From the NCBI RefSeq assembly GCF_021535135.1, contig NZ_CP091036.1, positions 2,542,001 through 2,606,000 on the forward strand: 64,000 bases of DNA, written 5' to 3'. Each line of letters starts with the position of its first letter. The first letter of the stretch is position 1. This document shows positions 1-64,000 of this stretch, one piece after another. Below the pieces are notes generated by a model. The model made no database searches, was not told where the DNA came from, and saw only the letters and a program-made list of their open reading frames with translations. The position numbers were made by a program, and so were the translations under genes. This DNA comes from Antarcticibacterium sp. 1MA-6-2. Its GTDB lineage: Bacteria > Bacteroidota > Bacteroidia > Flavobacteriales > Flavobacteriaceae.

Positions 1-896
1 TCATATGACATTACCCATGACATACTCATCGAAGTGGCTATTAGCAACATCACTATTGCAGTAGTACCTACAGAACTAATGAAAACCCCGTAAAGCTCAC
101 TTATTTTTAATTCTTTGTTTATAAAGGAAAGTACAAGACAATATAAAACAGCTATTCCTGAAGCTTCAGTTGCTGTAAATATTCCCGAAACAATACCGCC
201 AATGACAACCACCAGCAACAGAAGACTCGGCAGTGCCTGTAGAAAAGTTGTGACGATGCTTTTAAGGCTGCTTCTTTCTCCGGGAGGATATTTTTTCTTT
301 TTGATCCAGGCTGCAGCCACCAGCATCAACGCCAAACCCATTAGTATTCCCGGAATATATCCTGCCAAAAATAAGGAAGCAATAGACACACCTCCACTTG
401 CCAAAGAATACACTATAAGCACATTAGAAGGCGGAATTACTAATCCTGTTGTGGATGCAGTAATATTAACAGCAGCTCCAAATTCTTTTGAATAATTTTC
501 CCTTTGCATTGCAGGCCCTAAAATTCCCCCGATAGCTGAAGTCGCAGCAACAGCCGATCCAGAAATAGCGCCAAAAAGCATGGCCGCAATGACATTTACA
601 TAAATCAATCCGCCTGGGAGAGCCCCCATGAGGGCTTTGGCAAAGGCAATAAGCCTATTTGCTATTCCTCCCTGGTTCATAATTTGGCCCGCCAGTATAA
701 ACAAAGGAATTGCTAAAAGAGAAAAACTGTCTAATCCGGTAGCCATACGTTGGGCAACAGTTGTAAATGCAGCTAAGGAATCAATAGAAGCAAGTATAGT
801 AACAGTACAGGAGATTCCAATAGACCAGGCAACCGGAACTCCTACTCCCAAAAGAATAATAAAGGAAATTATGAGAATTAAGACTTCTGTCATCAT
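1..896 (-). CDS. dctM: TRAP transporter large permease DctM (3' end outside window)
   Basis: Large membrane subunit of a tripartite ATP-independent periplasmic transporter, the secondary carrier that moves an organic acid or sugar acid across the inner membrane using a sodium gradient. About 298 residues are present of the roughly 425 usual for the family; the gene leaves the window on the left. Reading begins MMTEVLILIISF and continues as hydrophobic helices with the typical segments LFILAGQIMN, MLFGAISGSAVA and VIPPSNVLIVY. The start ATG overlaps the dctQ stop in an ATGA arrangement (893-896), so the two are translationally coupled. Family assignment is firm; the substrate is not visible in the sequence. 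Confidence 0.93.
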   Translation of the reverse strand, partial: MMTEVLILIISFIILLGVGVPVAWSIGISCTVTILASIDSLAAFTTVAQRMATGLDSFSLLAIPLFILAGQIMNQGGIANRLIAFAKALMGALPGGLIYVNVIAAMLFGAISGSAVAATSAIGGILGPAMQRENYSKEFGAAVNITASTTGLVIPPSNVLIVYSLASGGVSIASLFLAGYIPGILMGLALMLVAAAWIKKKKYPPGERSSLKSIVTTFLQALPSLLLLVVVIGGIVSGIFTATEASGIAVLYCLVLSFINKELKISELYGVFISSVGTTAIVMLLIATSMSMSWVMSY

Positions 897-1360
897 ACCA
901 AATACTTTTTAGAATGGATGATTTCATTTAACTTATAAAATATAACCAGCACCCCACTAATGGGGACAACCATATAAACATAAGATAGCGGGAGATGTAA
1001 AGCTGCGGAAGATTGTCCTAAAATGTGATTAACATAAACCAGGTTTCCCCCTCCAATTACCAGAACTGTAAGGCTAAACAGAATAATTAGAATATTTATT
1101 ACTATTCTAAGTTTGATTCGGTTTGAGGGATTTAGTTTGGGAGGTAATATGTCTATGGCTAAATGAGCCTGTTGACCAGAGGCATATGCGGCACCTAGTA
1201 TTCCTATCCATATCAATAAATATCTGGCAATTTCTTCAGTAACTGAGCTTGGACTTTGTAAAACATATCTTGAAAACACCTGCCATAAAACCGCTGTTAC
1301 AATTAAAGCCATTGAAAGCACTAAAAATCCGCCCAGGAGTTTATCAATAATTTTTTTCAT
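893..1360 (-). CDS. dctQ: TRAP transporter small permease DctQ
   Basis: Small four-helix membrane subunit of the TRAP carrier, 155 residues as usual. It opens with a short basic N-terminus (MKKIIDKLLGG) and a first membrane helix, then the family-typical stretch VFSRYVLQSPSSVTEEIARY with the conserved R-Y/E-E pattern and LLIWIGILGAAYASGQ. It lies between dctP (1 bp gap) and dctM (4 bp overlap) in the order P-Q-M, so the three are one transcription unit. Confidence 0.93.
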   Translation of the reverse strand: MKKIIDKLLGGFLVLSMALIVTAVLWQVFSRYVLQSPSSVTEEIARYLLIWIGILGAAYASGQQAHLAIDILPPKLNPSNRIKLRIVINILIILFSLTVLVIGGGNLVYVNHILGQSSAALHLPLSYVYMVVPISGVLVIFYKLNEIIHSKKYLV

Positions 1361-1361
1361 T

Positions 1362-2345
1362 CTATTCTACTGCCTGAATTGCTTCTATTGTTCTTTTCAT
1401 TAAAGGATCCCTGCGGAATTCCTCATACATTGGCCCCACCAATTCCCTAAACTTTTCTTTATCGGGATGTATAATTTTAACTCCTGCCTCTTTCATTCCT
1501 TCTAATGCCTCTTGTTCAGATTCCTGCCACAGCTTTTTTTGATAGATTGATGATTCTTCAGCCGCTTCTTTTAGCCATTGTTTTTGCTGATCATTAAGTT
1601 TGTTCCAGACAATGGTACTAATTATTAATTCATCCGGTACAGCAGTATGTTCATCCATAGAATAGTACTGGCATACTTCGTAATGATTGTTCAGGTAGTA
1701 ACTGGGTAAATTGTTTTCGGCCCCATCAACAATTCCCTGTTGCAGTGCAGTATAGAGTTCGCCCCAGCTAATTGGTGTAGGAGAACCTCCTAAATGTTTA
1801 ACCATATTAATAGCGCTCTGGCTGGGCATTACCCTAAGCTTTAGCCCCTTTAGATCGTCTGGAGTTTCAATAGGAATATCTGCATAAAAATTACGGGTCC
1901 CCGAATCATAGAAAGTGAGTCCTATAAGCCTTTTACTTTCGCTACTCTTCAATAAAGTTTGACCAATTGCCCCCTCTAAAACTTTATACCGATGTGCGCT
2001 GTCACGAAATAAATAAGGAAGATTCAACACTTTAAATTCGGGTGCGAAATTTTCCATAGTTGCTGCAGAAACCTTTGTCATTCCCAAACTTCCTATTTGC
2101 AATAATTCAAGACATTCCCTCTCTGATCCCAATTGCTGATTGGGATAAATTTTAATACTTAAGCTCCCTCCAGATTTTTCCTCTACCTTTTCTGCCATAT
2201 ACACCATGGCTTTATGAACAGAGTGAGAGGTGTCTAAACCATGGCCTAACCTAATAATTTGAGTTTCTTCTTCAGTATTACAAGAAGCGCACAGGAACAC
2301 CAGACATAATAGAAATTTGCTATATGTAATTAATCTTGATTTCAT
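1362..2345 (-). CDS. dctP: TRAP transporter substrate-binding protein DctP, predicted lipoprotein
   Basis: Periplasmic solute receptor of the TRAP system. I place the start at 2345 (MKSRLITYSK) rather than the longer 2387 reading, because the shorter form begins directly with a basic signal sequence and a lipobox-like end (FLCASC), implying a membrane-anchored receptor. DctP-family landmarks are RLGHGLDTSHSVHKA at the mature N-terminus, GLKLRVMPSQ with the conserved ligand-binding arginine near the middle, and QQGIVDGAENN. About 327 residues. In Bacteroidetes such PQM operons often serve hexuronates, but nothing here fixes the substrate. Confidence 0.92.
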   Translation of the reverse strand: MKSRLITYSKFLLCLVFLCASCNTEEETQIIRLGHGLDTSHSVHKAMVYMAEKVEEKSGGSLSIKIYPNQQLGSERECLELLQIGSLGMTKVSAATMENFAPEFKVLNLPYLFRDSAHRYKVLEGAIGQTLLKSSESKRLIGLTFYDSGTRNFYADIPIETPDDLKGLKLRVMPSQSAINMVKHLGGSPTPISWGELYTALQQGIVDGAENNLPSYYLNNHYEVCQYYSMDEHTAVPDELIISTIVWNKLNDQQKQWLKEAAEESSIYQKKLWQESEQEALEGMKEAGVKIIHPDKEKFRELVGPMYEEFRRDPLMKRTIEAIQAVE

Positions 2346-4936: not shown

Positions 4937-5678
4937 ATGGAAATATTTTTAAATGCCGACACCTGGATAGCATTGGTAACTTTGACATTTATGGAGATAG
5001 TGCTGGGCATTGATAACATAATATTTATTTCCCTCGTTGCAGGAAAGTTACCTGAAGATCAACAGAAAAAAGCCAGGTTAGGCGGTCTTGGACTGGCTTT
5101 GGTAATGAGAATCCTTTTACTACTAAGTATTACCTGGATCGTAGGTCTTACAGAACTAGGTGATGACATTTGGTGACTTTGCCTTAAGCTGGAGAGATAT
5201 TATCCTGGTAGGTGGTGGTATTTTCCTGCTCGTTAAAAGTACGCTTGAAATTCATCATAAAGTTGAGGGACAGGAACAAAGCAAAGAAGTTAAAAAGGTC
5301 AGCTCATTTGGTTATGCTATCTTACAAATTGTCTTATTGGATATAATATTTTCTTTTGATTCGATACTTACAGCAATTGGATTAACAGATGAACTTATCC
5401 TGATGTTTATTGCAGTGACAGTTTCCATTATTGTAATGATGGTTTTTGCCAAAGCTGTTGGTGAGTTTGTAAATAAGCATCCTACAATTCAAATCCTTGC
5501 TTTATCATTTTTGATCTTAATTGGTGTAATGCTTATTGTTGAAGGTGCACACGCACACGTTCCCAAAGGCTATATCTACTTCGCGATCTTCTTCTCTCTT
5601 GCCATCGAAATGCTAAATATGAGATACAGGAAGAAAGCAGACTCTGTAACGCCGGAAGATCAATCTACAATCTCGTAG
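4937..5678 (+). CDS. terC: TerC family integral membrane protein (reading frame broken at 5155-5161)
   Basis: Multi-helix TerC protein, a family linked to metal (Mn2+) export and tellurium resistance. The N-terminal part carries the signature [19 protein letters not shown] with acidic residues in the membrane. After the break the frame resumes with [19 protein letters not shown], and the second repeat [15 protein letters not shown] is intact. Reading ACTAGGT at 5155 as ACCGGT gives LTEPVMTFGD, matching the family, so I treat it as one gene of about 247 residues. Its 3' end overlaps the convergent gene by 19 bp. Confidence 0.9.
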
Positions 5679-6241: not shown

Positions 6242-6848
6242 GTTCTTCTTTTATATTTTTACTTAAAGGGCAGCTCATAAAGTCATTCTTTTTTTCGAGA
6301 TGGTCTACGACACTTTGGACATCTTCCTTATCACTACCCTGGTGTAGTTTAGCAATTGCTTCTACTTTAATCAGGATTGTAACCAAAACCCCGTAATATA
6401 AGGCAGGTGGTCCCTAATAATATCTTCCGGAATATCCTGGTAGTATAAAGGTTTATCCTGATCTCTTTCAAATCTTGCGATAAGTTTTTGAAGAGATTCC
6501 TCCAGCTCCCAATCTGTTTGAACAGCAATTTTTGCATTTACATGAACTGCGGAATAATCCCAGGTGCTAATGTCTTTTTCTTTATACCAGGAAGATGAAA
6601 CATAAGAATGAGGGCCCTGAAAAACAATTAGAGCCTCTGCACCATCTTTAAGATGGTGTAGTTGTTCATTGTGATTTGCTATATGCGCAAATAGGTAGAA
6701 ATCATCTGGAGATCCTATAGCCAAAACCGGAATATGAGTTGCAAGCAGGCGCTCCCCCTGTACCACAAATGTTGCAAAAGGATGCTCTTCTATAAACCTG
6801 AAAAATGTAATCCTTCTCCCGTTTTAGGTATTTCTTAGGTTGATACAT
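6231..6848 (-). CDS. PaiB-like FMN-binding split-barrel protein (two frame breaks)
   Basis: Member of the PaiB family, flavin-binding split-barrel proteins sometimes annotated as negative regulators. Start MYQPKKYLKREKDY at 6848; then, in a second frame, ATHIPVLAIG, LFAHIANHNEQ, YVSSSWYKEKDISTWDYSAVH, the family core. In a third frame IKVEAIAKLHQGSDKED reaches a stop at 6231. The breaks are near 6796 (an extra G after CAG) and 6375. Unlike the other breaks in this window, the first does not fit an RCCGGY site; the second fits only loosely as GCCGGT. It starts 2 bp after the gntA-like stop codon. Confidence 0.83.
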
Positions 6849-11538: not shown

Positions 11539-12016
11539 TCAATTCAATCTCCAAATCTCGAAATTAAGTACAGCAGCAAAGAGCACCCACACTGCGTACG
11601 GCATTAGCAGGTAAGCAGCCCTGTCACTTACAATTTTGAACCATTTGATTGTGATAAGAAGCACAATAAAAAGCGCCACAATGTCTATTAGTGCCCAAAG
11701 CGGTTGCTTTAAACCGAAAAAAAGCAGCGACCAGCCTGCATTTAGCAAGAGCTGAAATCCAAAGTGATACAGAGCCGTTTGCACCCATTTGTGATAAAAA
11801 CCTTTGCTCCAAACGATCCCTGCAGCAATTCCCATTAAAATATACATTAACGCCCATACTAGGTCCAAATATCCAGTTGGGTGGATTAAAACTGGGCTTT
11901 TCTAATGTTGTATACCAATCGCCTATACCCACCTGGGTCGCCAGGGAGGCCATAAAGCCTACGAACAGGCAAATTCCTAAGGCCACAGAAACTCTTATGA
12001 CAATCCTTGATGACAT
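11539..12016 (-). CDS. tspO: TspO/MBR (translocator protein) family membrane protein (frame broken at 11858-11864)
   Basis: Five-helix tryptophan-rich membrane protein of the TspO family, which binds tetrapyrroles and sterol-like ligands. The N-terminal half has the signature WYTTLEKPSFNPPNWIFGP. After the break the frame continues VWALMYILMGIAAGIVW, then NAGWSLLFFGL and a C-terminal WVLFAAVLNFEIW. Reading ACCTAGT (coding strand) as ACCGGT restores FGPVWALMYI, exactly the family pattern. One gene of about 158 residues. Confidence 0.92.
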
Positions 12017-12114: not shown

Positions 12115-13198
12115 ATGGAAACAGAAGATTTCATTTTCACATCTCAGGCTAAGGAAATTTCCCCGGGAAGTGTCACCTGGCAGTCGCCAAGCAACATTGC
12201 GCTTGTAAAATACTGGGGCAAGAAAAAAAAACAAATTCCCGCAAATCCGTCAATTAGTTTTACCCTCGATTCCTGCAGAACTACCACTACTTTAGAGTTT
12301 ACAAAAAAAGAGACTCCCGGTACTGATTACGATTTTGAACTTTATTTTGAAGGGAAGAAAAAGGAAGATTTTAAACCAAAGGTCGAAATCTTCTTTAAAA
12401 GGATTGAAGATTACTGTCCATACCTAAAAAATTTCCAGCTGGTGATAAGAACCGAAAATTCTTTTCCCCACAGTAGCGGAATTGCTTCCTCTGCCAGCGG
12501 AATGAGCGCTCTGGCCCTCACCGTGATGAGTCTTGAAAAAGAATTAAATCCCGATATTACTGAAGATTTTTTTCAGAAAAAAGCCTCCTTCCTTGCCCGG
12601 CTGGGATCGGGGAGTGCCTGCAGGAGTATAGAAGGCCCGCTGGTGGTATGGGGAGAACATTCTGCCGTTGATAATAGCAATGATCTCTTTGGAACTCTTT
12701 ATCCTCACAAGGTACACAAGGTGTTTGAGAATTATCAGGACACTATTCTATTGGTTGACAAAGGATCAAAGCTTAGTGAGCAGTACCCTGGGACACAATT
12801 TGATGCACGACCATCCGTATGCAAAAGCCAGGTTCATGCAGGCTCATGATAATCTTGAAAGACTGGTAAAGATTTTAGAAAAGGGAGATTTACAAGGCTT
12901 TATGGAAATAGTGGAAAGTGAGGCTTTAAGCCTCCACGCAATGATGATGAGCAGCAATCCTTACTTCATCCTAATGAAACCAAATACCCTGGAGATCATT
13001 AACGCGATATGGCATTTTAGGAAAGAAACTCACCTCCCGGTTTGTTTTACACTTGATGCAGGAGCCAATGTTCACGTACTGTACCCGGAAAAAGACCGGG
13101 AACTAATTTTAGAATTCATTAAGGATGAGTTAGTTGTGTATTGTGAAAAGGAACAGTATCTTTGCGACGCTATTGGAATGGGCGCAAAAATGTTGTAG
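12115..13198 (+). CDS. mvaD: Diphosphomevalonate decarboxylase (frame broken at 12771-12777)
   Basis: GHMP-superfamily enzyme converting mevalonate diphosphate to isopentenyl diphosphate, the last step of the mevalonate pathway. The N-terminus has SPSNIALVKYWGKK and SISFTLDSCRTTT. The ATP/substrate region is NSFPHSSGIASSASGMSALAL followed by RLGSGSACRS. After the break come STLGHNLMHDHPYAKARF and FTLDAGANVHVLY. Reading GCTTAGT as GCCGGT restores SKPVSSTLGHN. About 360 residues, the usual length. Followed by mevalonate kinase and UbiA. Confidence 0.93.
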
Positions 13199-14205: not shown

Positions 14206-15112
14206 ATGGCGGCAGCTAGAAACAAACGTTTGATGCTCAAAATGCTGAGTTTGTTTTCAGTTGTGAGAGGTTACAATATCCTGGTCTTAATAGTTGCACA
14301 GTACCTTACCTCTGCTTTTATTCTTGCTCCGGAATTACCGCTGCGACGGGTATTATTTGATGATAATTTATTTTTCCTTATTCTGTCCTCTGCCACTGTA
14401 ATTGCATCCGGCTACATCGTCAATAACTTTTACGACAGCGAAAAAGACCTTATTAACAGGCCCAGAAAAACTATGCTGGACAGGTTTATTAGCCAGCGCA
14501 CAAAGCTATCAGTATATTTTCTTCTGAATTTCGCAGCCATTTTCTTTGCGAGTTACGTTTCTTTTAGAGCGGTGGTTTTCTTTTCTATTTACATTTTTGC
14601 TATTTGGGTTTATTCCTATAGATTAAAAAGGGTCCTCTTTTTGGGTAATCTGGTAGCAAGTATACTTACAATTACTCCCTTCTTTGTGATTTTTGTCTAT
14701 TACAGGAATTTTGAAACCGTAATTTTTATTCACGCTACCTTCCTGTACCTGATGATAGTAATGAGGGAACTGGTAAAAGATCTGGAAAATTTAAAAGGAG
14801 ATCTTATCCAGAATTATAAAACTATACCTGGTCGTGTACGGGGAAAAACTCAGCAAATTCTTCCTCTCCATACTCACTGTGGTAGCTGTTATTCCTATCC
14901 TGCTGCTAATTACCAGGTTTGACATTGGTTTAATGGATTATTACTTTTATGTATCTCTGGTTATGCTTCTCTTTTTTCTACTGTTTCTATATTTCAGCAA
15001 TGCCAAATGGCAATATCTCCTGCTTCACAATATTCTAAAGTTTATAATAGTGGCCGGGGTACTAAGCATCCTCCTCATTGATCCTTCTGAGGTGTGGAAC
15101 AGAGTGTTTTAA
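14206..15112 (+). CDS. UbiA-family prenyltransferase, geranylgeranylglycerol-phosphate type (frame broken at 14826-14832)
   Basis: Nine-helix membrane prenyltransferase. The two Asp-rich motifs are NNFYDSEKD (first) and RELVKDLENLKGD (second), as in archaeal-type digeranylgeranylglyceryl phosphate synthase homologues found in Bacteroidetes. The start lies 13 bp after mevalonate kinase, in one unit with the mevalonate genes. Reading ACCTGGT as ACCGGT restores KTIPVVYGEKLSKF and joins both halves, about 302 residues. A PcrB-type prenylglyceryl phosphate synthase is encoded at 49075-49807, so both ether-lipid steps exist in this genome. Confidence 0.88.
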
Positions 15113-16612: not shown

Positions 16613-18015
16613 TTGAATACTAAATACAGCGATTTAATAGACCAAACATATTATTTTCCTCAGGAAGAATTTAAACTGGAGAACAACGAATTACAATTCC
16701 ACAATATCGATTTGATGGAGTTAGTTGAAAAATATGGTGCCCCCTTAAAATTTACATATCTTCCTAAAATTTCTCAGAATATAAGTCGGGCAAAAGCCTG
16801 GTTTAAAAATGCAATTGAAAAACATAATTATAAAGGAACTTATAATTATTGTTACTGCACAAAAAGCTCTCATTTTGAACACGTTCTTAATGAAGCGCTT
16901 AAGAATGATATTCATATTGAAACATCTGCAGCTTTTGATATTAATATCGTAAAAGCCTTAAAAGAATCTGGAAAAATAACCGATGAGACTTACGTGATCT
17001 GTAACGGATTCAAACGTGACGTTTATGTAAGCAATATTGCAGACCTTCTTAATAGCGGTCATAAGAACTGCATACCAATTATTGATAATTATGAAGAAGT
17101 TGACCTTCTTTCTGAAGCTATTGAAGGCAATTACAAAATAGGAATTAGGATCGCCTCTGAGGAAGAACCAAAATTTGAATTTTATACCTCAAGATTAGGT
17201 ATTGGTTACAAGAACATTGTTCCTTTTTATAACAAAAAAGTAAAGGATAATGAGCAGGTAGAATTAAAAATGCTCCACTTCTTTATTAATACGGTATTCG
17301 GGATACTGCTTACTACTGGAACGAACTTAATAAGTGTCTCCAGGTATATATAGACCTGAAGAAGGTTTGTCCCAGCCTTGACAGTTTAAATATAGGCGGA
17401 GGTTTTCCAATAAAAAATTCACTTCATTTTGATTATGACTACCAGTACATGGTAGAGGAAATAATAAACCAGATTAAACTCGCTTGTGAAGAAGCTGAAG
17501 TAGAAGTTCCACACATTTTTACTGAATTTGGATCCTTTACAGTTGGTGAAAGCGGTGGAGCGATTTATGAAATTCTTTACCAGAAACAACAGAATGACCG
17601 TGAAAAGTGGAATATGATCAATTCATCCTTTATCACCACTTTACCGGACACCTGGGCAATAAGTAAAAAATTCCTCATGCTGGCGGTTAACCGCTGGAAT
17701 GATGAATATGAAAGGGTTTTGCTGGGAGGACTTACCTGCGACAGTGATGACTATTATAATTCTGAACAGCACACGAACGCCATTTACCTTCCAAAGTACA
17801 GGAGAGACAGACCGCTTTATATTGGCTTTTTTAATACAGGTGCTTACCAGGAAACCATTGGAGGATTTGGAGGTTTACAACATTGCCTAATCCCACAACC
17901 AAAGCACATATTAATAGATAAGGATGCTGATGGTAACATTACCACAGAGCTTTTCCGCGAGCAGCAAACATCAAAGGAGCTGTTGAGCATCCTTGGATAC
18001 AGCGAAGCCAATTAA
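16613..18015 (+). CDS. speA: Biosynthetic arginine decarboxylase, PLP-dependent (frame broken at 17291-17295)
   Basis: Fold-III PLP decarboxylase making agmatine from arginine. It starts at TTG (16613), NTKYSDLIDQTYYFPQ, as in flavobacterial homologues. The PLP-binding lysine lies in YNYCYCTKSSHFEHV. After the break come SLNIGGGFPIKNS, the FTEFGSFTVGESG region and a late GGLTCDSDDYY with the substrate-binding cysteine/aspartate. Reading ACGGT as ACCGGT restores HFFINTGIRDTAYYWNELN. About 467 residues. It is followed by agmatinase and a deoxyhypusine-synthase-like gene, so it belongs to polyamine synthesis. Confidence 0.92.
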
Positions 18016-45071: not shown

Positions 45072-45442
45072 CTATGACTGTTTAATCGCGTCTTTTTTCT
45101 CCTTCTTTTCTTTCATATCGATCCAGTTTCCTTCAGCATCGGCATAAACTTTTTTCTCTTCTCCGCTTACACTCAATTTGATCTTGTAAACTTTTTTACC
45201 TTCTTTTTCTTTAACCCAGGCTTCCTGAGTTCCTGCATCAGCAAAATCACGAGTTATTGCATCTGTTACAGCAGCGGTAACTCGGTGAGTTCAATCTTTT
45301 GAAAATCATCATTCGCTTCCTGAGTAATACCTACTTCAGATTGTGCTTCAGTATAAACTTCAGATGAAGTTTCGGTTTCCTGTGCTTGTGTGGTTGTAAA
45401 GAACAATCCAATTGCTGCGAATGTTAGAAATAATTTTTTCAT
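45072..45442 (-). CDS. Small secreted PepSY-like protein (frame broken at 45274-45278)
   Basis: About 123 residues after repair. The signal peptide is MKKLFLTFAAIGLFFTTTQAQ. The mature part begins with an acidic, Thr-rich linker, then IELTELPAAVTDAITRDFAD, followed by a beta hairpin region KVYKIKLSVSGEEKKVYADAEGNW. This is the PepSY-like secreted family of Bacteroidetes, of unknown function. The frame is broken where coding ACCGC must be ACCGGC to give LPAAVTDA. Neither half is long, so the gene is easily missed. Confidence 0.85.
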
Positions 45443-46134: not shown

Positions 46135-47638
46135 TTAAAAGTCTCTACTAAGCACTTCAACAAATACCGTATTCCATTGTGCCATAGCTCCGTTCCAAAG
46201 ACCGGGGAGTTCAAGGGCTTTAAGAGGCTTTCCATCTTTAGTTTTGTTTGCCACAAAACTCGTAGAAGGATCTACATAATTGGTAAGATCAAAAGTATCA
46301 CCAGTATTATCGCGTAGACCACAAACGAGATCTACGGGATTAAAATGAGTAGCTTTTTGAGCTATCTCCTTCTGCTGTGGATTTTTCTCATCTATTTGTG
46401 CACCCTCAATTATTTGAAGAGATTTAGTACCATTTTGCATATTTACAAGAAAGGGTCCTCCTCCAGGTTCACCTTCATTTTTAACCATTCCACAAACTCT
46501 CAGGGGACGATTAAGTCTTTCCCTAATTCGATTTATTCTCTCCTCTCTCGAAGCTGAATTAAAATCCTTTGCAAAAGCTGTAAACAACTCTTCCCTGATG
46601 AATTTTTCTATTTCAGCAATTTCCTCATCCGTGATCTCTTCGTTTTCCAGAGCATTTAAATGAAGAAAACATTCTTCCTGCAACTGCAACAATTTCCCGG
46701 CCAACATCTTTTTATATTTTGCAACCTCTTTTGCACGTAAAGCCACTACTACATTATCTATATTCTTGATAAAAGCAACATCAGCATCCTGTTTATTAAG
46801 ATTTTCAATTAGTGCACCGTGACCTCCCGGCCGGAAGAACAACTGGTCATCTTCTGTTCTAAAAGGTTCATTTTTATCATTAGCAGCAATGGTATCGGTT
46901 TTGGGATCCTGATGAGAATAAGTAATATCGAATGTGATTTGAGTTTTTTTCTCAACTTCCGACCTAATCTTTTCAAATTCTGCTTCAAATTTTTCCTGGT
47001 GGTCGGGAGAAACTGTGAAATGTAATTTCGCCACTCCATTAACCTCAGCATATTCTGCTGCCTCGTATAAATGCTCCTCAAAAGCAGTTGCTACATAATC
47101 TTTATAGTTATGAAAGGGAACAAGACCTTTGGGATAGTTACTAAGATCAAGTCCTGGTGAAAAGAGCATTGTTTTTACCAGGAGATATTTTCTAGCATCT
47201 TCACTCAGAGAATCAAATTCGGGTTCAATTTCCTTTGCATAGTTTAAAGCACTCTCGTAAAAAGGCAGTTTTTCAATATTATTAAAAAATGCTTTAAGAT
47301 TCGAATTCTCACTTTGAGAAAGATAATTTTCAAGATCCTCCTTTTGAGGATCAAATTTGTCCAGGAAAAGATGCAAAGCTTTAAACATACGTGTAGCTGC
47401 TCCAGATGCTAAGTACAAATTTTATTATATCCAGATCGTTCTTTCGGGACTCATAAAATTTGGCAAGGCTTTCTTTCTCTTCTTCAGAGTATTGACGAAT
47501 GCCATTACCTACAGTAGCTGCAGCCTCAATATCAACAGGAATATTACCACGTTTAAAGATATCTAACTGTTCATGAATCTTATCTTCACTTAGTCCTCTT
47601 TTATTTATCTGTTGTAAATCTTCCTGTGTTAATTTCAA
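46135..47638 (-). CDS. DUF4301 family protein (frame broken at 47408-47414)
   Basis: About 500 residues. The N-terminal part (TQEDLQQINKRGLSEDKIHEQLDIFKRG) and the glycine-rich segment SGAATRMFKALHLF look like a nucleotidyltransferase-type phosphate loop. Later segments include TKSLQIIEGAQIDEKNP and a C-terminal LWNGAMAQWNTVFVEV. Reading coding ACTTAGC as ACCGGC restores IIKFVPASGAATRMFKAL. The family is Bacteroidetes-wide and uncharacterised. It overlaps the upstream NadR-like kinase gene by 4 bp, so it is in the same operon. Confidence 0.9.
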
Positions 47639-49074: not shown

Positions 49075-49807
49075 CTAATGAATCGTCTTTACTGAATGTA
49101 CCATCTTAAAATTTCCTGTTTCAAATGCTGTTCCCACAACTACTACGTCTGCCCCTGCCTCAAATGATCTGCAAAGTTGTTCCCGGGTGCGAATTCCCCC
49201 ACCCACAATAACAGGAATTTTGAGGGCAGCTTTTACTTCGGAAATAATTTCTTCGGAAACTGGTTTATCTGCTCCGCTACCTGCTTCGAGGTACACGAGT
49301 TTTTTTCCGGAAAATTGACCTGCGAGTGCTGTATTTACAATAGCTTCTATATTATCCTGAGGAAGCGGTTTAGTGTCACTAACCCTTTGCACTGCACATT
49401 CCCTGCCTCCATCAATGAGAATATAACTTAGGTGGGAATAATTTCTAATTTAGAAAATCTTAGCTGGGAGACAGATTTTACCTGTTGTTCAATGAGATAC
49501 TCCGGATTTCTCCCTGAAATGAGACTCAAAAACAGCAGCGCATCTGCTTCTTCTGAAATTTGGGTGTGATCGCCCGGAAAGAGAACGATAGGTAAGTTTG
49601 TTACTGCTCTAACACTACGAACAGTGGATTGAGTTTTGCCCGCTTCAGCCGTACTTCCTCCTATAAAAATATGAGTAATTCCCCCAGGTAATTTTTTCAG
49701 AAAAGATTCTGCTTCAGCTTCATGAAACTTCTCCGGGTCAATAAGGACTGCAAGAGATTTAATACAGCAGCTGCAGCTCTATTAAGATCTTCAAAAATTT
49801 TTGCCAT
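49075..49807 (-). CDS. Geranylgeranylglyceryl/heptaprenylglyceryl phosphate synthase, PcrB-like (two breaks)
   Basis: TIM-barrel prenyltransferase joining glycerol-1-phosphate to a prenyl diphosphate, the first step of archaeal-type ether lipids. Repaired reading: MAKIFEDLNRAAAAGIKSLAVLIDPEKF, then THIFIGGSTAEAGKT, LPIVLFPGDHTQIS, VYLEAGSGADKPV and VIVGGGIRTREQL. Breaks: 49764-49768 (coding GCTGT for GCCGGT) and 49426-49433 (ACCTAAGT for ACCGGT, restoring EIIPTGYILIDGGREC). About 244 residues. Its ATG shares a base with the upstream PPTase stop (TAATG). The UbiA gene at 14206 would act after it. Confidence 0.92.
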
Positions 49808-50520: not shown

Positions 50521-51836
50521 ATGTCGACTAAAACAGTGCCTTATACAGCCCATAAAGTTAAAGATATTTCCCTGGCAGAGTGGGGAAGAAAAGAAATAGA
50601 ACTTGCAGAAGCAGAAATGCCAGGACTTATGTCTTTAAGGGAGGAATTTAGAAATGAGCAACCTTTAAAAGGCGCACGTATTGCAGGCTGTCTTCATATG
50701 ACCATTCAAACAGCTGTATTAATTGAAACTTTAGTGTCTCTGGGTGCTGAAGTTACGTGGAGTTCCTGTAATATTTTTTCCACTCAAGATCAGGCAGCAG
50801 CGGCTATAGCAGCAGCAGGAATCCCGGTTTATGCGTGGAAAGGAATGACTGAAGAAGAATTCAACTGGTGTATTGAACAAACTCTATTTTTTGGTGAAGA
50901 CAGAAAGCCTCTAAATATGATCCTGGATGATGGGGGAGATCTTACCAATATGGTCCTGGACAAATATCCTGAACTTGCAGAAGGAATAAGAGGACTGTCA
51001 GAAGAAACTACCACAGGTGTTCACCGTCTTTACGAAAGAATGAAAAAAGGAACTCTTCCTATGCCTGCAATTAATGTAAATGACTCCGTAACCAAGTCTA
51101 AGTTTGACAATAAGTATGGTTGCCGTGAAAGTGCTGTAGATGCGGTTAGACGTGCTACAGATATTATGCTTGCCGGAAAAAGAGTGGTGGTTTGTGGCTA
51201 CGGGGATGTGGGAAAAGGAACTGCACAGTCCTTTAAAGGAGCTTACCAATTGTTACGGTTACTGAAATTGATCCTATTTGTGCCTTACAGGCTGCAATGG
51301 ACGGTTTTGAAGTTAAAAAACTTGAAACTGTTCTGCCTAAAGCCGATATAGTTATTACTACTACAGGAAACAAAGACATAGTTCGCGGAGAGCATTTCGA
51401 AGCTATGAAAGACAAGACTATCGTTTGTAATATTGGCCATTTTGACAATGAAATAGATGTTGCCTGGTTAAATAAAAACTTCGGGGACACAAAGAATACT
51501 ATTAAACCACAGGTTGATAAATATACTATTAACGGAAAAGATATTATTCTTCTTGCTGAAGGAAGACTTGTCAATCTTGGTTGTGCCACCGGGCACCCGA
51601 GCTTTGTGATGAGTAATTCCTTTACAAACCAAACTTTGGCTCAAATTGAACTTTGGAAAAATTCAGATCAATACCAGAACGAAGTATATATGCTCCCAAA
51701 GCATTTAGATGAGAAAGTTGCAAAACTTCACCTTGAAAAAATTGGTGTTGAGCTAACAGAACTTTCCGAAGAACAAGCCGAATATATAGGAGTTACTGTT
51801 GAAGGACCTTTTAAACCTGAATACTACAGATATTAG
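50521..51836 (+). CDS. ahcY: Adenosylhomocysteinase (frame broken near 51241-51247)
   Basis: NAD-dependent hydrolase that clears S-adenosylhomocysteine after methyl-transfer reactions. About 438 residues. N-terminal half: [37 protein letters not shown] and the catalytic [13 protein letters not shown]. The NAD-binding loop is [13 protein letters not shown]. After the break: [23 protein letters not shown] and GHFDNEIDV, ending KPEYYRY. The break has GCTTACCA where GCCGGTTCA ([14 protein letters not shown]) is expected. The TAG stop is the first unit of a heptamer repeat. Confidence 0.94.
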
Positions 51837-52724: not shown

Positions 52725-53239
52725 TTAACTTAAAGCAGCAATTAAATCTGCTTTCAACATTGAAGAGTAACCTTCAATTCCTCTTTCTTTTGCCATTTCT
52801 TTTAATTCAACAACAGTTTTGTCGTTTAAATCATTAGAATTACTGGCTTCATCTTTTGAAGAAGACGAAGCTTCTTTTTTAGCAGAGGTTGTCTCTTCTT
52901 TTTTAGCAGAAGAAGATTTTTTAGAACCTGGTAAAGAAATACCGTAATTGAAATCTCTGTTAAAGATTGACGATGACCATTTTTCTTACGGTAACCTTTT
53001 CTTCTCTTCTTTTTGAAGACAATAACTTTGTCTCCTTTTACGTGCCTGGTGATGGTTGCATCTACCGAAGCTCCGTCTATAGCTGGGGCGCCTAAAGTTA
53101 TATTGTCACCATCATAAGTAAGAAGAACATTATCAAAGGAAACGCTATCCCCTTCTTCTCCCGCTAAGCGATGTACAAATACTTTTTGGTCTTTTGCAAC
53201 CTTAAATTGCTGCCCTGCTATCTCTACAATTGCGTACAT
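52725..53239 (-). CDS. rplU: 50S ribosomal protein bL21 with long C-terminal extension (frame broken at 52941-52945)
   Basis: The canonical bL21 body occupies about residues 1-105: [19 protein letters not shown], then [20 protein letters not shown]. Reading coding ACGGT as ACCGGT restores [15 protein letters not shown] and continues into a Lys/Ser/Glu-rich linker. A terminal Rho-N/SAP-like helical module follows ([20 protein letters not shown]...). The total is about 171 residues, some 65 longer than E. coli L21. Flavobacterial bL21 proteins often carry such tails; their function is unknown. Confidence 0.94.
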
Positions 53240-55320: not shown

Positions 55321-57391
55321 ATGATGAAAAATAATATAAAAACATTCGCAATTTTATTTCTGATCTCCTTCGGAATTCAGGCTCAAATTGATCGCAGCAA
55401 GCAACCCCAACCGGGACCAGCTCCGGAAGTTAATCTTGGATCACCACAAACTTTCACCCTTGACAATGGGTTAAAAGTACTTTTAGTTGAAAACCACAAG
55501 TTACCCAGAGTGAGTCTTACTCTTACTTTAGACAATCCTCCATCTCCTGAAGGCACAAAGAAAGGTGTGGCATCTTTAATGGGTAGTTTATTAGGCACAG
55601 GGTCTAAAAAAACAGATAAGGATAAATTCAACGAAGAAATAGATTACTTAGGAGCCAATGTGAATTTCTTCTCTGGTGGTGCTGCAGCAAATACGCTATC
55701 TAAATATTTCCCAAGAGTTTTAGAATTGGTGGCTGAGGGTACCCTTCAACCTAATTTTACAGAGGAAGAATTTACTAAAGCAAAAGAGCGCACCCTGGAA
55801 AGTTTAAAATCTAATGAAAAGAATGTAGCCGCCAATGCCAGCAGATTACGAACCGCCCTGGCTTACGGTAAAAACCATCCTTATGGAGAAATGACTACCC
55901 AGGAAAGTGTAGAAAGTGTTACGCTTAATGATGTAAAATCATACTATAACACTTATTTCTCTCCAAAAAATGCTTATTTGGTTGTAGTTGGGGATACTAA
56001 TCTAAAGGAGGTAAAAGCTCTTGCAAAAAAATATTTTAGTAACTGGAACAAAAGTGAAATTCCTTCTTTTACACTTCCTGAGCCTAAAAATGTACAGACT
56101 ACCCAGGTTAATTTTCTAGATATGCCAAATGCAGTTCAAAGTGAAGTAGCTGTAGTGAACACTCTTAAACTTACGAAAAAGGATAAGGATTATTTCCCTG
56201 CCCTTATGGCCAATCAAATTCTTGGTGGTGGCGGTGAAGGAAGACTATTCCTTAACCTCAGAGAAGACAAAGGATATACTTACGGCGCTTATTCAAGCAC
56301 AGGTAACGATGAATATGTTTCAACATTTGTTGCTAGTGCAAGTGTTAGAAATGCAGTGACTGATAGTGCTGTAGTTGCTTTTCTTGATGAAATTCACCGT
56401 ATAAGGAATGAGAAAGTTTCTAAGGAGGAACTGGAAAATGCCAAAGCCAAGTATGTGGGTAATTTTGTTATGGCTCTTGAACAGCCCAGCACAATTGCCA
56501 GATACGCGCTTACTGTTGAAACAGAAGATCTTCCTAAAGATTTTTATCAAAACTATTTAAAAAATATTAATGCAGTTACTGCAGAAGATATCCAAAGAGT
56601 AGCTAAAAAGTATTTTATGGTAGACCAGGCAAGGATAGTAATTGCTAAGTAAAGGAAGTGAGGTTGCTGGACCTTTAGAGAACCTTACTTACAACGGGAA
56701 AAATATCCCCGTAAAATATTTCGATAAGCAGGGAAATGAAGTAAGCAGACCGGACTTCAATAAAGCAGTAGATCCTTCTGTCACTACTGAATCTATTTTC
56801 AAAAATTATATTAAAGCAATAGGTGGCAAAGAAGCTGTTGAAGACGTAGAAAGTGTGCTAATGAAAGCAGAAGCTTCTATACAGGGGCAACAACTAAGCC
56901 TTGAAACCAGGAACACCAAAGATGGAAAATCTTCGCAGATCATTGCAATGGGTGGCAACATCATAAGCAAAAACATCTATAATGGCGAAAGCGGGTTTGT
57001 AGTAGCCCAGGGTCAAAAGATGCCTTATAATGATGAGCAATTGAATGCTGCAAAAGCAGAATCAAACCCTTTTCCTGAACTTAATTCTCCTAATGCAAAA
57101 TTAAGAGGAATTGAGCAGGTGAATGGGAAAGATGCTTATGCTGTAGCTTTTGATGAAAATACTGTTGTCTACTATGATGTAGAGACAGGTTTAAAGGTGC
57201 AGGCAGTGAAAACTGTTAGCCAGGGAGGACAAACAATGACTGTTCCCACGAATTTTAGCAATTATCAGGCAGTAAAAGGAGTAAAATTCCCTTACACCAT
57301 TACACAGTCTTTTGGACCACAATCTTTTGAATTTAATGTTACTTCTATTCAGATTAACGAAGGAGTGAGTGCTGAAGATTTCATAGAGTAA
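55321..57391 (+). CDS. M16 family peptidase-like protein, non-catalytic partner with C-terminal domain (frame broken at 56644-56650)
   Basis: About 690 residues after repair. The signal peptide is TFAILFLISFGIQAQ. The first M16 domain lacks HxxEH (KKGVASLMGSLLGTGSKK). The Arg/Tyr pair of the second domain is present (REDKGYTYGAYSSTGND), as usual for the inactive half of a heterodimer. Reading GCTAAGT as GCCGGT restores RIVIAGKGSEVAGPLENLTY. It joins a C-terminal domain of about 230 residues that resembles outer-membrane lipoprotein-sorting folds (GESGFVVAQGQKMPY, TVVYYDVETGLKVQA). Confidence 0.9.
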
Positions 57392-58407: not shown

Positions 58408-58972
58408 TTATTCCTGCCAGCGCAGTGTTTCCATCAAATGCTTCATATCTTCTTTAAGATAAGATGCAGCTAAGCATTATGGAATCAAAATTAGGTTTTT
58501 CATTGAAGTACAAAGATCCGGTGATGAAGTGCTTTACACTATCTGTCACATAAAATTGAGCTTGTGAGGCAGCATCGCCGTCTACTTCATAAAACATTCC
58601 GTAGGTTTTATTCTGCTCATTCGTATAAACATCTCCTTCAATAAAATCGGCTTTAATAGTGTGCTGCAGAGGCAATTTTTGTGCGTCCATTAAGAGAGAA
58701 TCAATGTTGTTATTAACCTGTTGATAGGTAATAAAAACGGTAGCATCCAGTAGAGGATAATTAATATTTAACCAACAGGAAACATTATTCCGGGCAGGCG
58801 CCACCCGGGAAAGATTATTTATTTCAAAGCTGTAAGAACAATCAGGCTTATATTCTGAATAAACAGCTTCGGGATAATTAAGTGCAAGAAAAGCCTTTGG
58901 CTTAGGCAAATTTTCTTCTTTGCAGGAGATTAATACGCTGCTTAGAAAAAACAGGATTAAGAATCTTTTCAT
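58408..58972 (-). CDS. gldD: Gliding motility lipoprotein GldD (frame broken at 58469-58475)
   Basis: About 187 residues from MKRFLILFFLSSVLISC (58972), a lipoprotein signal with lipobox. The body has PKAFLALNYPEAVYSEYK, CSYSFEINNLSRV, then CWLNINYPLLDATVFITYQ and YVTDSVKHFITGSLYF, the GldD family pattern. Reading coding GCTTAGC as GCCGGC restores DSIMPAASYLKEDMKHL and a normal ending TLRWQE at 58408. Needed for type IX secretion-linked gliding in relatives. It starts 4 bp after gldE. Confidence 0.93.
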
Positions 58973-58976
58973 AAGT

Positions 58977-60343
58977 TTATTTTTTCCGGTCTTCGCCATT
59001 TTCCTGTATAGCGGCCGAAGCTACAGGCTCAATACTCAACTTTATTTGTTTAAGCCTTTTGTCATCTATTACTTCTACTGTAAAGTGATAATTAAAAAAA
59101 GATATTAGCTCGTTCTTTTTAGGAAAGCCTCCCGAAATTTCAAGTAAAAATCCGGCCAGAGTTTCAGATTCTCCCCGTTTTTCTTCAAAGACCAAAGGGT
59201 CTTCTAGCTTTATGATCTTATAAAAATCTTTGAGCGGTGTTTTTCCTTCAAAAACAAAATTACTGTCATCAAGTTTTGAAAATATCAAATCTTCATCATC
59301 AAACTCATCACTAATATCTCCTACTATTTCCTCAATAATATCTTCAAGAGCAATTAATCCGCTGGTACCGCCATACTCGTCAACTACAATGGCAAGATGA
59401 ATTTTTTTGGTTTTAAACTCATTAAGCAGGTCATCAAGTTTTTTATTTTCAGGAATAAAATAAGGATCACGCACTAAGCTGGTCCAGTCAAATCTTTTCT
59501 TATCCAGGTAAGGCAACAAATCCTTCACATATAAAATGCCCACTACCTGGTCTATACTTTCCTTATATACTCAGTATACGGGAATATCCATTTTCTATAA
59601 TTTCAGGAATTATCTCTTCAAAACTGTCACTTTCGTCCAGTGCAAAGATATCCATTCGGGGACGCATGACCTGTTTGGTATCGGTATTTCCAAAGGAAAC
59701 AATACCTTTTAAGATCTTTTGTTCTTCCTTAGTAGTGTCCTCTTCCCTTGTAAGCTCAAGAGCCTGGGATAGCTGGTCTATGCTTATATAACTCTTTTGT
59801 TTACCCAGCCTTTCATGAATATATAACGTTACTGCCCTCATAGGTGTACTTAGAGGAGAAAAAAGCGTGTCCAGAACGTTCATAGGATAAGCCATAAAAT
59901 TCGAGAATTTTACGTTGTTCCTGCTGGCGTACACTTTAGGTAAGATTTCACCGAACAATAAAATTAAGAAGGTTATCACCCCCACTTCCACAACAAATTT
60001 AAAGTTGATCCCAAATAATACAGTATTCATCCTGCCAAAGAATTCATCTGTAAGCAGGTCGAAAAGCAAAACAATGGCAATGTTAATTGTATTGTTAGCC
60101 ACGAGGATGGTGGCAAGTAATTTTTTTGGCTTCTCAAGTAGCTTTACAACGATCTTTTGCGCGTTACTCCTTTTGCCGTTTTCAGTTATAAAATTTGCTA
60201 AGTGTTAGGGAAAAAAAAGCAACTTCAGCGCCTGAGATAAGGGCAGAGCATACCAGCAAAACTAACAACATAACTACGCTGAAGATCTGTGAGATATCAA
60301 TAAAGAAAAAGAGGGAAATTAAACTGGGAGGATCCGGATCCAA
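58977..60343 (-). CDS. gldE: Gliding motility-associated protein GldE, CBS/transporter-associated domain (two breaks)
   Basis: About 454 residues. TTG start (60343) reading DPDPPSLISLFFFIDISQ; four membrane helices with VCSALISGAEVAFFSL, the DUF21/CorC-like membrane region. Then two CBS domains (VMRPRMDIFALDE; KKIHLAIVVDEYGGTSGLIALEDI) and a C-terminal CorC/HlyC domain. Breaks: 60197-60203 (coding ACTTAGC for ACCGGC, restoring SLTPANFITENGK) and 59569-59575 (ACTGAGT for ACCGGT, restoring SRIPVYKESIDQ). Operon ssb-gldE-gldD. Confidence 0.92.
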
Positions 60344-60922: not shown

Positions 60923-61973
60923 TTAATACTGGTGAAAATCAAATTCATTCAGGAAATTGGCTATTAAAACGGGAACGGGATATTCTTTTAAACTTTCTAC
61001 AGGAATAGCTTTCTGTAAAAACTTAGGCTGTTCCAAAAGCCAAAACCTGGTAAGAATTTGTTGATGTGATAATTTATGTACGACGGGGGTATTATTATAA
61101 AGTGAGATTTCATGTTCTTCCTTTCCGGCCAGCAGAATATACTTTTCATTTTTTATTAATTCTTCGGCCGTCACTAAATCATCAGTTTCCACCAGCGGGA
61201 ATTGGTAGAGACCCTGCCATATTCCTTTTCCTATTCGCTTTTCCAACACGGTTTTATTTTCTTCGGAAAGAAAAACAAGATAATTGAAAAACCTGTTCCT
61301 TATCTTTCCCTTCTTCAGCTTTACAGGAAGTTCTTTGATTTTTCCCTCTTTTAAAGCCATACAACTATGGGAAAGTGGACAGGTATCGCAAAGCGGAAGT
61401 TGAGGCTTACATTGTGTAGCTCCAAATTCAATCATGGCCTGATTAAATAAGCCCGGTGTGGCAGGATTAAGCAATTCATTAGCCAGTTCTTTAAATTCCT
61501 TTGCTCCTGCAGTACTATTAATAGGTGTATCTATCCCAAAATACCGGGAAAGCGACCTGTAAACATTGCCGTCTACCACTGCCACTAAGCTCTTCATAAC
61601 AGGTAGAAGCTATTGCACTGGCAGTATATTCCCCTATGCCTTTTAGCTTCTTTAAGTCTTTATAGGTGTTTGGAAAAATACCATTTAAGTCTTTAGCCAC
61701 AAAATTTGCGGTTTCGTGCAGGTTTCTTGCCCGGGAGTAATAACCTAAACCCTGCCAGGTTTTAAGAACCTTTTCAAGTGGGGCTTCAGCTAAATGAAAA
61801 ACATCTGGAAACTCCTCGAGAAAGCGAAAATAATAAGGCATTCCCTGATCAACCCGGGTTTGTTGTAGGATAACTTCACTTAACCAGATGGAATAAGGAT
61901 CCTTTGTTTCCCTCCAGGGTAGATCCCTCTTATTTCTTAAATACCAGTAAATGAGAGTTTTATCAAAAGACAT
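60923..61973 (-). CDS. mutY: A/G-specific adenine glycosylase MutY (frame broken at 61584-61590)
   Basis: Base-excision glycosylase removing adenine opposite 8-oxoguanine. N-terminal half: NKRDLPWRETKDPYSIWLSE, VILQQTRVDQGMPYYFRFLE and the helix-hairpin-helix KLKGIGEYTASAIAS. After the break: VAVVDGNVYRSLSRYFGID with the catalytic aspartate, then the 4Fe-4S cysteines CKPQLPLCDTCPLSHSC. A C-terminal NUDIX-like domain follows (KGIWQGLYQFPLVE). Reading GCTTAGT as GCCGGT restores CYEEPVAVVDGNV. About 350 residues. Confidence 0.94.
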
Positions 61974-62551: not shown

Positions 62552-62667
62552 TGCTCTCACTACTTTTTTTAGTACAAGACGTTCTTTGAAATCGAAACCT
62601 GGTTTATAAACAAAAGCCGAGGTTTCTTCAGGCTTAAAAACCCTGTGATTAAAATATTGTTTAATCC

Positions 62668-62684
62668 ATCCGCCGTAGGCGGAT
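62668..62684. repeat. Palindromic repeat in the rng leader
   Basis: ATCCGCCgtaGGCGGAT, two perfect 7-bp arms around GTA, 15 bp before the rng start. Similar GGCGGAT palindromes are dispersed in flavobacterial genomes; it may instead act as an mRNA hairpin controlling rng. Confidence 0.6.
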
Positions 62685-62698
62685 AAAAATCTAATAGA

Positions 62699-64000
62699 GT
62701 GGACAAAGAGTTAATTATTAGAACTGGTTCCTCTGCTGTAGATTTTGCCTTATTAAAAGATGGAAAACTTGTTGAATTAAACAAAGAAGAAGACGACAGT
62801 AATTTTGCGGTTGGAGATATATTTCTGGCCAAAGTTAGAAAAGCTGTTCCGGGACTAAATGCCGCATTTGTTAATGTGGGCTATACTAAAGATGGTTTTT
62901 TACACTATCACGATCTTGGTCCGCAAGTCTCTTCATTGTTGAAGTTCATAAAACGTGTAAGCACAGGTAAATTAAAAGATTATTCTTTACAGAATTTTAC
63001 TTTTGAAAAAGATATTGATAAAGACGGCAGCATTGTTGACGTCTTAAAATCAAATCAGTCGCTACTGGTACAGGTGATGAAAGAACCCATCTCCACCAAA
63101 GGCCCCAGGATAAGCTCCGAGCTTTCCCTTCCCGGCCGTTATATTGTGCTGGTCCCATTTTCTAACCGCGTCTCTGTCTCACAAAAGATAGAAAGCAAAG
63201 AAGAGAAAGACCGCCTGAAAAGATTGGTGAAAAGTATAAAACCAAAAGGATTTGGAATTATAGTACGTACCGTAGCCGAAGGCAAAAAAGTAGCAGAGTT
63301 GGACAGAGATCTCCAGAATTTACTGGGTCGCTGGACAGCAATGAGCAAAAAACTTTATAAAGCGCCTCACCCTTCCAAAGTCTTGGGAGAATTAAACAGA
63401 GCTTCTTCAATATTGAGAGACATCTTTAATGATTCCTTCACCTCAATATGGGTAGATGACGAAACGCTTTATGATCAAATTAAAGATTTCGTGGCAGAGA
63501 TTGCCCCGAATAAAGAATCAATAGTAAAATTGTATCAATCAAACGTTCCCGTTTTTGAAAAATTTGGTATCGAAAGACAAATAAAAACTTCATTTGGCCG
63601 CACCGTTTCCATGAGTAAGGGTGCCTATCTCATTATAGAGCATACAGAGGCCATGCACGTTATAGACGTGAATAGTGGCAACAGGTCCAACAAAGCAAAA
63701 AATCAGGAGGATACCGCATTAGAGGTAAACCTGATTAGCGCAACCGAAATTGCCCGCCAGCTGCGACTCCGCGATATGGGAGGTATCATTGTTATAGACT
63801 TCATTGATATGAACAAAGCTGAAAACCGAAAGGCCCTCTACGATCACCTTAGAAACGAAATGAGCGATGACCGTGCAAAGCACAAAATTTTACCTCCGAG
63901 TAAATTTGGTTTGATACAAATCACAAGACAACGCGTAAGGCCGGAAACTAATATCAAGACAAGGGAAGAAAATCCTAACGGTACAGGTGAAATTGAAGCA
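62699..64000 (+). CDS. rng: Ribonuclease E/G (rng type), 3' end outside window
   Basis: 434 codons present from a GTG start (62699), beginning DKELIIRTGSSAVDFALLKDG; the gene continues past the window edge. S1 domain: FAVGDIFLAKVRKAVPGLNAAFVNVGY and DGFLHYHDLG. The RNase H-like/DNase I-like catalytic part has RTVAEGKKVAEL, AMHVIDVNSGNRSNK (first catalytic aspartate) and MGGIIVIDFIDM (second), then FGLIQITRQRVRP. It processes rRNA and mRNA. No frame break in the visible part. Confidence 0.94.
   Translation, partial: MDKELIIRTGSSAVDFALLKDGKLVELNKEEDDSNFAVGDIFLAKVRKAVPGLNAAFVNVGYTKDGFLHYHDLGPQVSSLLKFIKRVSTGKLKDYSLQNFTFEKDIDKDGSIVDVLKSNQSLLVQVMKEPISTKGPRISSELSLPGRYIVLVPFSNRVSVSQKIESKEEKDRLKRLVKSIKPKGFGIIVRTVAEGKKVAELDRDLQNLLGRWTAMSKKLYKAPHPSKVLGELNRASSILRDIFNDSFTSIWVDDETLYDQIKDFVAEIAPNKESIVKLYQSNVPVFEKFGIERQIKTSFGRTVSMSKGAYLIIEHTEAMHVIDVNSGNRSNKAKNQEDTALEVNLISATEIARQLRLRDMGGIIVIDFIDMNKAENRKALYDHLRNEMSDDRAKHKILPPSKFGLIQITRQRVRPETNIKTREENPNGTGEIEA

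What the first reader, a model, noticed from the sequence alone, without database searches (positions are those of the whole stretch)
1..64000. 27 gene breaks in 22 genes all fall on RCCGGY, and no intact RCCGGY remains in the window
For each break I compared the two frames with the expected conserved protein and asked which original bases restore it. In 27 cases the answer is RCCGGY. Sites: terC 5155, tspO 11858, mvaD 12771, UbiA 14826, speA 17291, mannosyltransferase 21469, leuS 26166 and 27322, uppP 30116, aat 33326, kinase 35620, TonB receptor 39826 and 40575, hybrid kinase 42611 and 42703, NtrC-type regulator 44005, PepSY-like 45274, DUF4301 47408, PcrB 49426 and 49764, ahcY 51241, rplU 52941, M16 56644, gldD 58469, gldE 59569 and 60197, mutY 61584. 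By my count 14 are +1, 5 are +2, 6 are -1 and 2 are in-frame stops. Reading by eye I found over one hundred CCGG tetramers flanked otherwise (TCCGGT, ACCGGA, CCCGGC and so on) and none as RCCGGY. Random indels or real decay would not choose one hexamer.
Basis: partly seen in the sequence, partly recalled or inferred. Interest (0 to 1): 0.95.

Follow-up and report, generated by a model that had tools for sequence, protein, structure and literature searches.

The report
Gene breaks from misread methylated RCCGGY
In the genome record of this flavobacterium, almost every expected copy of the DNA word RCCGGY is missing and dozens of genes look broken where it should stand; most likely the living cell marks that word chemically and nanopore sequencing misread it, so the breaks are probably errors in the record rather than real damage.

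Summary
The window has 166 CCGG, none as RCCGGY. Of 29 internal breaks shared by both relatives, 23 fall on RCCGGY-compatible residues, background 18%. An 80 kb stretch beside the window repeats this: 0 of 243 CCGG, 36 shared breaks, 29 compatible. Genome-wide ACCGGT occurs 42 times against 904 for the reversed word; fifteen congeners have 282 to 1166. Of 16 genomes of the genus only this one has a full-length endonuclease gene that overlaps its only PF00145 methyltransferase gene, with a Vsr gene nearby: the gene content reported for Neisseria NmeDI, target RCCGGY. Best explanation (inferred; no reads seen): a nanopore-only assembly in which native, probably m5C-modified RCCGGY was miscalled nearly everywhere. 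leuS, rplU and ahcY are almost certainly intact in the cell. Modification-driven nanopore errors are known; this motif, its near-total erasure and the indel-heavy spectrum are a new instance.

The parts
5150..5160 (+). break (+1) in terC
   Evidence: two adjacent Pfam TerC pieces in different frames; not covered by the fetched relatives
11855..11864 (-). break (+1) in tspO
   Evidence: both relatives; both hold RCCGGY there
12768..12776 (+). break (+1) in mvaD
   Evidence: both relatives; residues not compatible in the relatives
14824..14832 (+). break (+1) in UbiA prenyltransferase
   Evidence: both relatives
17288..17296 (+). break (-1) in speA
   Evidence: both relatives
21464..21473 (-). 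break (-1) in mannosyltransferase
   Evidence: both relatives; compatible in one
26163..26173 (-). break (+2) in leuS
   Evidence: both relatives
   Evidence: both relatives; homopolymer
27320..27327 (-). break (+1) in leuS
   Evidence: both relatives
30114..30123 (+). break (+2) in uppP
   Evidence: both relatives; residues not compatible in the relatives
33324..33333 (-). break (+1) in aat
   Evidence: both relatives
34005..34016 (-). possible break (+1) 7 residues before the aligned end of a gene; unclear
   Evidence: both relatives; not compatible
35617..35626 (+). in-frame stop in kinase gene
   Evidence: both relatives
39824..39833 (-). in-frame stop in TonB receptor gene
   Evidence: both relatives; residues not compatible in the relatives
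40573..40582 (-). break (+2) in TonB receptor gene
   Evidence: both relatives; both hold RCCGGY there
42609..42618 (+). break (+2) in hybrid kinase
   Evidence: both relatives
42701..42709 (+). break (+1) in hybrid kinase
   Evidence: both relatives
44003..44010 (-). break (+1) in NtrC-type regulator
   Evidence: both relatives
45270..45279 (-). break (-1) in PepSY-like gene
   Evidence: both relatives
   Evidence: both relatives
47406..47416 (-). break (+1) in DUF4301 gene
   Evidence: both relatives
49424..49433 (-). break (+2) in pcrB
   Evidence: both relatives; both hold RCCGGY there
   Evidence: both relatives; not compatible, 17 residues from the aligned start
51238..51248 (+). break (-1) in ahcY
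   Evidence: both relatives
52939..52948 (-). break (-1) in rplU
   Evidence: both relatives
56642..56651 (+). break (+1) in M16 peptidase gene
   Evidence: both relatives
58467..58476 (-). break (+1) in gldD
   Evidence: both relatives
59567..59574 (-). break (+1) in gldE
   Evidence: both relatives
60195..60204 (-). break (+1) in gldE
   Evidence: both relatives
61582..61591 (-). break (+1) in mutY
   Evidence: both relatives; compatible in one
6368..6382 (-). break seen with both relatives that is not RCCGGY-like; unexplained

Best explanation
The gene breaks are most likely sequencing errors: the cell is predicted to methylate RCCGGY through an NmeDI-like restriction-modification cassette, and a nanopore-only assembly made from native DNA would then miscall that word almost everywhere. 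Shown: the word is nearly gone from the assembly; relatives mostly have it, or residues compatible with it, where the breaks stand; and this genome alone among 16 congeners has the full-length endonuclease gene, which overlaps the only PF00145 methyltransferase gene found in the genome. Inferred: the mark is m5C, the methyltransferase targets RCCGGY and is active, and the platform was nanopore without short-read polishing. Inferred mechanism: modified cytosines on both strands shift the ionic current; the basecaller, not trained on this context, would settle on the same wrong string in most reads, so the consensus keeps it. Between a flanking purine and pyrimidine the assembly shows strings such as CTAG, CTAAG, CTTAG or CCTAAG, often one or two bases longer than CCGG; in genes this reads as frameshifts or stops.
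For: Motif-specific loss: 0 of 166 in the window, 6 of 1036 in 400 kb of the rest, against 217 of 808 and 213 of 943 in two congeners; the four RCCGGY words are the four most depleted of 4096 hexamers in 464 kb. ACCGGT 42 against reversed control 904; 15 congeners 282-1166 with controls 283-1207. Placement: 23 of 29 shared breaks compatible, background 18%, p 1.8e-12; in 80 kb to the right 29 of 36, p 5e-15, with 0 of 243 CCGG as RCCGGY. A break lies beside 15 of 105 RCCGGY of the relatives against 10 of 350 other NCCGGN, p 4.8e-5. Controls: the same pipeline between the two relatives gives 11 events per 45,703 aa and 8 per 45,466 aa, against 36 per 22,637 and 39 per 22,782 in the right flank. 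Error strings flanked R...Y stand at 21 of 36 right-flank breaks, Y...R at 1, background 1.6%. Cassette: methyltransferase, endonuclease and Vsr close together; full-length endonuclease in 1 of 16 congeners; a methyltransferase match in the same locus in 60 of 65 endonuclease loci. NmeDI (RCCGGY, m5C, with Vsr): PMC7973814 and PMC4081073 (passages). RCCGGG stays common (14 ACCGGG, 4 GCCGGG in the window), which fits RCCGGY rather than the wider RCCGGB also reported for M.NmeDI. Nanopore indels at 5mC: PMC12506013 (passages).
Against: No reads, platform or methylation data were available. M.NmeDI and R.NmeDI sequences were not compared; the only sequence link is a source's label 'NmeDIP' on a 65% relative of the methyltransferase. 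In 6 of 29 window and 7 of 36 right-flank breaks the relatives' residues are not compatible; 26657 is a homopolymer and 6373 is unexplained. In the 40 kb left flank few genes aligned, only 4 breaks were shared and 2 compatible (p 0.15). In the window alone the four words are depleted but not the four lowest hexamers. Of 15 error strings tested in the 400 kb sample only 4 are enriched R...Y at p below 0.05 one by one. The 42 surviving ACCGGT show a context effect that I did not predict.
Confidence: 0.93

Rival explanations
1. Another modification or writer causes the miscalls: N4-methylcytosine, phosphorothioate, a 7-deazaguanine or a bulkier cytosine mark at RCCGGY.
For: Erasure is near total, while in one nanopore paper only specific occurrences of a methylated motif were affected (PMC12392509, passages).
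Against: No PF01555 methyltransferase and no DndC (its profile passed the cut-off in none of the control genomes, so a weak test) was found in the genome; one C5 methyltransferase beside an endonuclease and near a Vsr gene is present. A gene broken by the same errors could be missed. SspBCD and Dpd genes were not searched.
Confidence: 0.06
2. Natural avoidance of RCCGGY by selection against self-restriction, with breaks from some other cause.
For: Reichenbachiella faecimaris, which carries the cassette, has only 60 ACCGGT against control 1956.
Against: There CCGG is rare in every context (44 RCCGGY among 219 CCGG in 400 kb), unlike here. Avoidance does not put frameshifts at the lost sites.
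Confidence: 0.02
3. Real gene decay or hypermutation at RCCGGY, for example through faulty Vsr repair of deaminated m5C.
For: m5C sites are mutation hotspots (established knowledge) and a Vsr gene is present.
Against: leuS, rplU and ahcY are broken in a genome rated 97% complete; such a cell should not live. Deamination gives C-to-T changes, not +1 and +2 insertions (established knowledge).
Confidence: 0.01
4. Ordinary random or homopolymer indels.
For: One of 29 shared window breaks is at a homopolymer, 3 of 36 in the right flank.
Against: The other 28 and 33 are not, and 23 of 29 and 29 of 36 breaks are RCCGGY-compatible.
Confidence: 0.005

Closest known systems
Modification-induced nanopore consensus errors (Dcm sites in Klebsiella, PMC6591954; GCAGC and GCTGG in Listeria, PMC10687267; 5mC in Neisseria, PMC12506013; passages read)
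   Same: Errors cluster at a methylation motif or methylated base and survive consensus; strain-dependent; in the Neisseria paper almost all methylation-related mismatches were 5mC, and most erroneous indels lay at or beside methylated bases.
   Different: Motif RCCGGY; near-total loss; indels dominate among the gene breaks here, while mismatches dominated in the Listeria and Neisseria cases (208 SNPs, 103 indels in the latter; but my break count cannot see silent substitutions); seen here without reads, from the assembly alone.
NmeDI restriction-modification system of Neisseria meningitidis (12/7 RCCGGY 7/12; PMC4081073, PMC7973814; passages)
   Different: Host differs; direct sequence comparison with NmeDI was not made; cleavage untested.
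Cfr10I/Bse634I family (RCCGGY, type IIF)
   Same: Same target word (PMC4081073, passages).

Membership tests
Modification-induced nanopore errors | errors concentrated at one sequence motif | tested here: met
   23 of 29 and 29 of 36 shared breaks compatible; 0 of 166 and 0 of 243 CCGG left as RCCGGY; left flank 2 of 4 and 1 of 108
Modification-induced nanopore errors | a modification enzyme with matching target in the genome | tested here: inconclusive
   one PF00145 methyltransferase, endonuclease full-length in this congener only; its target is inferred from the NmeDI-like gene content and a source label
Modification-induced nanopore errors | errors vanish in amplified DNA or short reads | not testable with these tools
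   no reads held
Modification-induced nanopore errors | data are nanopore reads of native DNA | not testable with these tools
NmeDI-like restriction-modification system | C5-cytosine methyltransferase | tested here: met
   PF00145 E 5.9e-48, TIGR00675 E 2.8e-46
NmeDI-like restriction-modification system | adjacent restriction endonuclease | tested here: met
   overlapping 359-aa gene; relatives that carry a name are called restriction enzyme, restriction endonuclease or hypothetical protein; methyltransferase match in 60 of 65 endonuclease loci, a few of them partial
NmeDI-like restriction-modification system | Vsr gene in the cassette | tested here: met
   TIGR00632 E 2.7e-46; Vsr found in only 8 of the 65 other loci
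NmeDI-like restriction-modification system | sequence homology to M.NmeDI and R.NmeDI | not tested
   no Neisseria locus among the 65 found; only the label NmeDIP on P0172
NmeDI-like restriction-modification system | cuts on both sides of RCCGGY | not testable with these tools
   needs biochemistry
Cfr10I/Bse634I family | PF07832 endonuclease in the genome | tested here: inconclusive
   no match, but nothing rang in the controls either

The most novel reading that the evidence does not exclude
The mark at RCCGGY is not plain m5C but a stronger or bulkier cytosine modification written by this NmeDI-like cassette, which is why a basecaller fails at about 95% of sites and even inserts bases; assemblies of this kind would then betray new DNA modifications by the words they lack.
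Probability: 0.07. Interest if true: 0.65.

Novelty: new member of a known kind. Interest (0 to 1): 0.42.

Why it matters
If right, a species-representative genome carries on the order of fifteen hundred to two thousand false gene breaks (65 shared breaks, 52 of them compatible, in 144 kb of window and right flank, scaled to 4.38 Mb; an extrapolation), so pseudogene counts, pathway calls and comparisons built on it are wrong. It also shows that a methyltransferase's target can be proposed from an assembly alone: a missing palindrome, breaks where relatives have it, and a fitting cassette absent from congeners. The same screen could flag other public genomes.

Tried and rejected
Rejected: real decay, random indels, natural avoidance (see rivals). 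Enrichment of 7- and 8-mers against the congeners was swamped by composition differences and told little. Reichenbachiella faecimaris looked like a second case by ACCGGT count but avoids CCGG in every context. Ferruginibacter locus L151 matches only in pieces, yet its genome is not depleted (2035 against 1900). Bse634I profile: no match, weak test. PDB by sequence: no match for the endonuclease; the best Foldseek E was 0.38 and the VIA matches are middling, on a model of mean pLDDT 74.8 and pTM 0.57. The endonuclease in plasmid records: only partial matches under 60% identity. The error-string lists were drawn up after looking at window breaks, so only the right flank and the 400 kb sample are independent tests; the sum uses 8 of the 15 strings listed there, and strings such as CCTGG, CCAGG and TAAG were not enriched. 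Paper searches: only combined RCCGGY with nanopore (3 papers, seen as a listing); general searches on nanopore motif errors listed no title naming RCCGGY. I found no report of it as a nanopore error motif, in a library that lacks most subscription papers. Rows dropped before counts: events under 20 residues from an aligned start or under 7 from an aligned end, under 20 from either end; relatives' proteins under 80 bits, or under 120 bits or spanning over 4.5 kb, and those overlapping a better one by over 30%. In one search, before these filters, 34 events were shared and 25 compatible.
Full report
Observation. In the window 0 of 166 CCGG are RCCGGY. In 20 stretches of 20 kb spread over the rest of the genome it is 6 of 1036, while two congeners, G011 and G003, give 217 of 808 and 213 of 943 in 200 kb each. 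ACCGGT, ACCGGC, GCCGGT and GCCGGC are the four most depleted of all 4096 hexamers, by a Markov expectation, in 464 kb of this genome; in the window alone they are depleted but other hexamers rank among them. Over the whole 4.38 Mb contig ACCGGT occurs 42 times and its reversed control 904 times; in 15 congeners ACCGGT occurs 282 to 1166 times against 283 to 1207. RCCGGG is not lost (14 ACCGGG and 4 GCCGGG in the window), so the word is RCCGGY and not a wider RCCGGB.

Breaks. G011 and G003 are syntenic with most of the window from about 2.7 kb on. At 22 of the 26 sites at least one relative has residues that RCCGGY could encode, and at 12 at least one relative's own DNA holds RCCGGY (background for G011 1.8%). 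The six others: a run of six G in leuS at 26657, a break at 6373, an unclear one at 34013, and three whose relatives have other residues (12772, 30119, 39830).

Replicate and controls. In 40 kb to the left 1 of 108 CCGG is RCCGGY; few genes aligned, 4 breaks were shared and 2 are compatible (p 0.15). The same pipeline run between the two relatives gives 11 events per 45,703 aa and 8 per 45,466 aa, against 36 per 22,637 and 39 per 22,782 in the right flank. A break lies beside 15 of 105 RCCGGY of the relatives and beside 10 of 350 CCGG in other contexts (p 4.8e-5).

What stands there instead. Short strings such as CTAG, CTAAG, CTTAG, CCTAG and CCTAAG sit between a purine and a pyrimidine at many breaks: 18 of 29 in the window with none in the opposite flank context, 21 of 36 with 1 in the right flank. 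In the independent 400 kb sample eight of these strings occur 302 times flanked R...Y and 268 times Y...R, against 134 and 228 in the relatives (p 1.2e-6); one by one only 4 of the 15 strings tested reach p 0.05. The 42 surviving ACCGGT are unusual: 33 have A or T on both sides against 55 of 129 in the relatives (p 6.9e-5). A context-dependent caller could leave that, though I did not predict it.

Why an artefact. leuS, rplU and ahcY are broken in a genome rated 97% complete, which a living cell could hardly afford. Modification-driven consensus errors in nanopore assemblies are documented: Dcm sites (PMC6591954, passages), two Listeria motifs (PMC10687267, passages), 5mC in Neisseria with indels at or beside methylated bases (PMC12506013, passages), and ambiguous positions that fell from 2357 to 44 after PCR (PMC11610573, passages). 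The exception, Reichenbachiella faecimaris (60), avoids CCGG in every context (44 RCCGGY of 219).

Organism. Among the 120 listed agmatinase relatives those with names include Gramella, Christiangramia, Gillisia, Salegentibacter and Zunongwangia, so this is a flavobacterium of that clade; the exact species is not known to me.

Verdict.

Noticed in passing
L006:10853-12286 and L005:2996-3974 (G000:C1 about 3940853-3947493): The restriction-modification cassette lies between a tRNA-Met with an overlapping recombinase gene (PF07508) and a tyrosine-recombinase-like gene, as if it arrived on a mobile island.
   Followed up: partly
window 26652-26660: A run of six G breaks leuS independently of RCCGGY, as a homopolymer error would.
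   Followed up: yes
window 6368-6382: A break seen with both relatives that fits neither RCCGGY nor a homopolymer.
   Followed up: no
window about 51833-51922: A short stretch matches many places in G011 and parts of it two more places in this genome; it looks like a dispersed repeat.
   Followed up: no
genome of L118 (G056, Reichenbachiella faecimaris): CCGG is rare in all contexts (219 in 400 kb) in a genome that carries the same cassette; possible true avoidance.
   Followed up: partly
genomes G044, G049, G052, G067: The reversed control word TGGCCA is almost absent (10 to 34 copies) while ACCGGT is common, which hints at avoidance of or loss at GGCC-type words.
   Followed up: no
L151 (Ferruginibacter sp. 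P-RSF-NP-03): The best matches to the endonuclease and methyltransferase cover only pieces, so the cassette may be broken there, without ACCGGT depletion.
   Followed up: partly
G000, 464 kb sample: CTAG and CATG are far below expectation (294 against 831, 676 against 1134).
   Followed up: no
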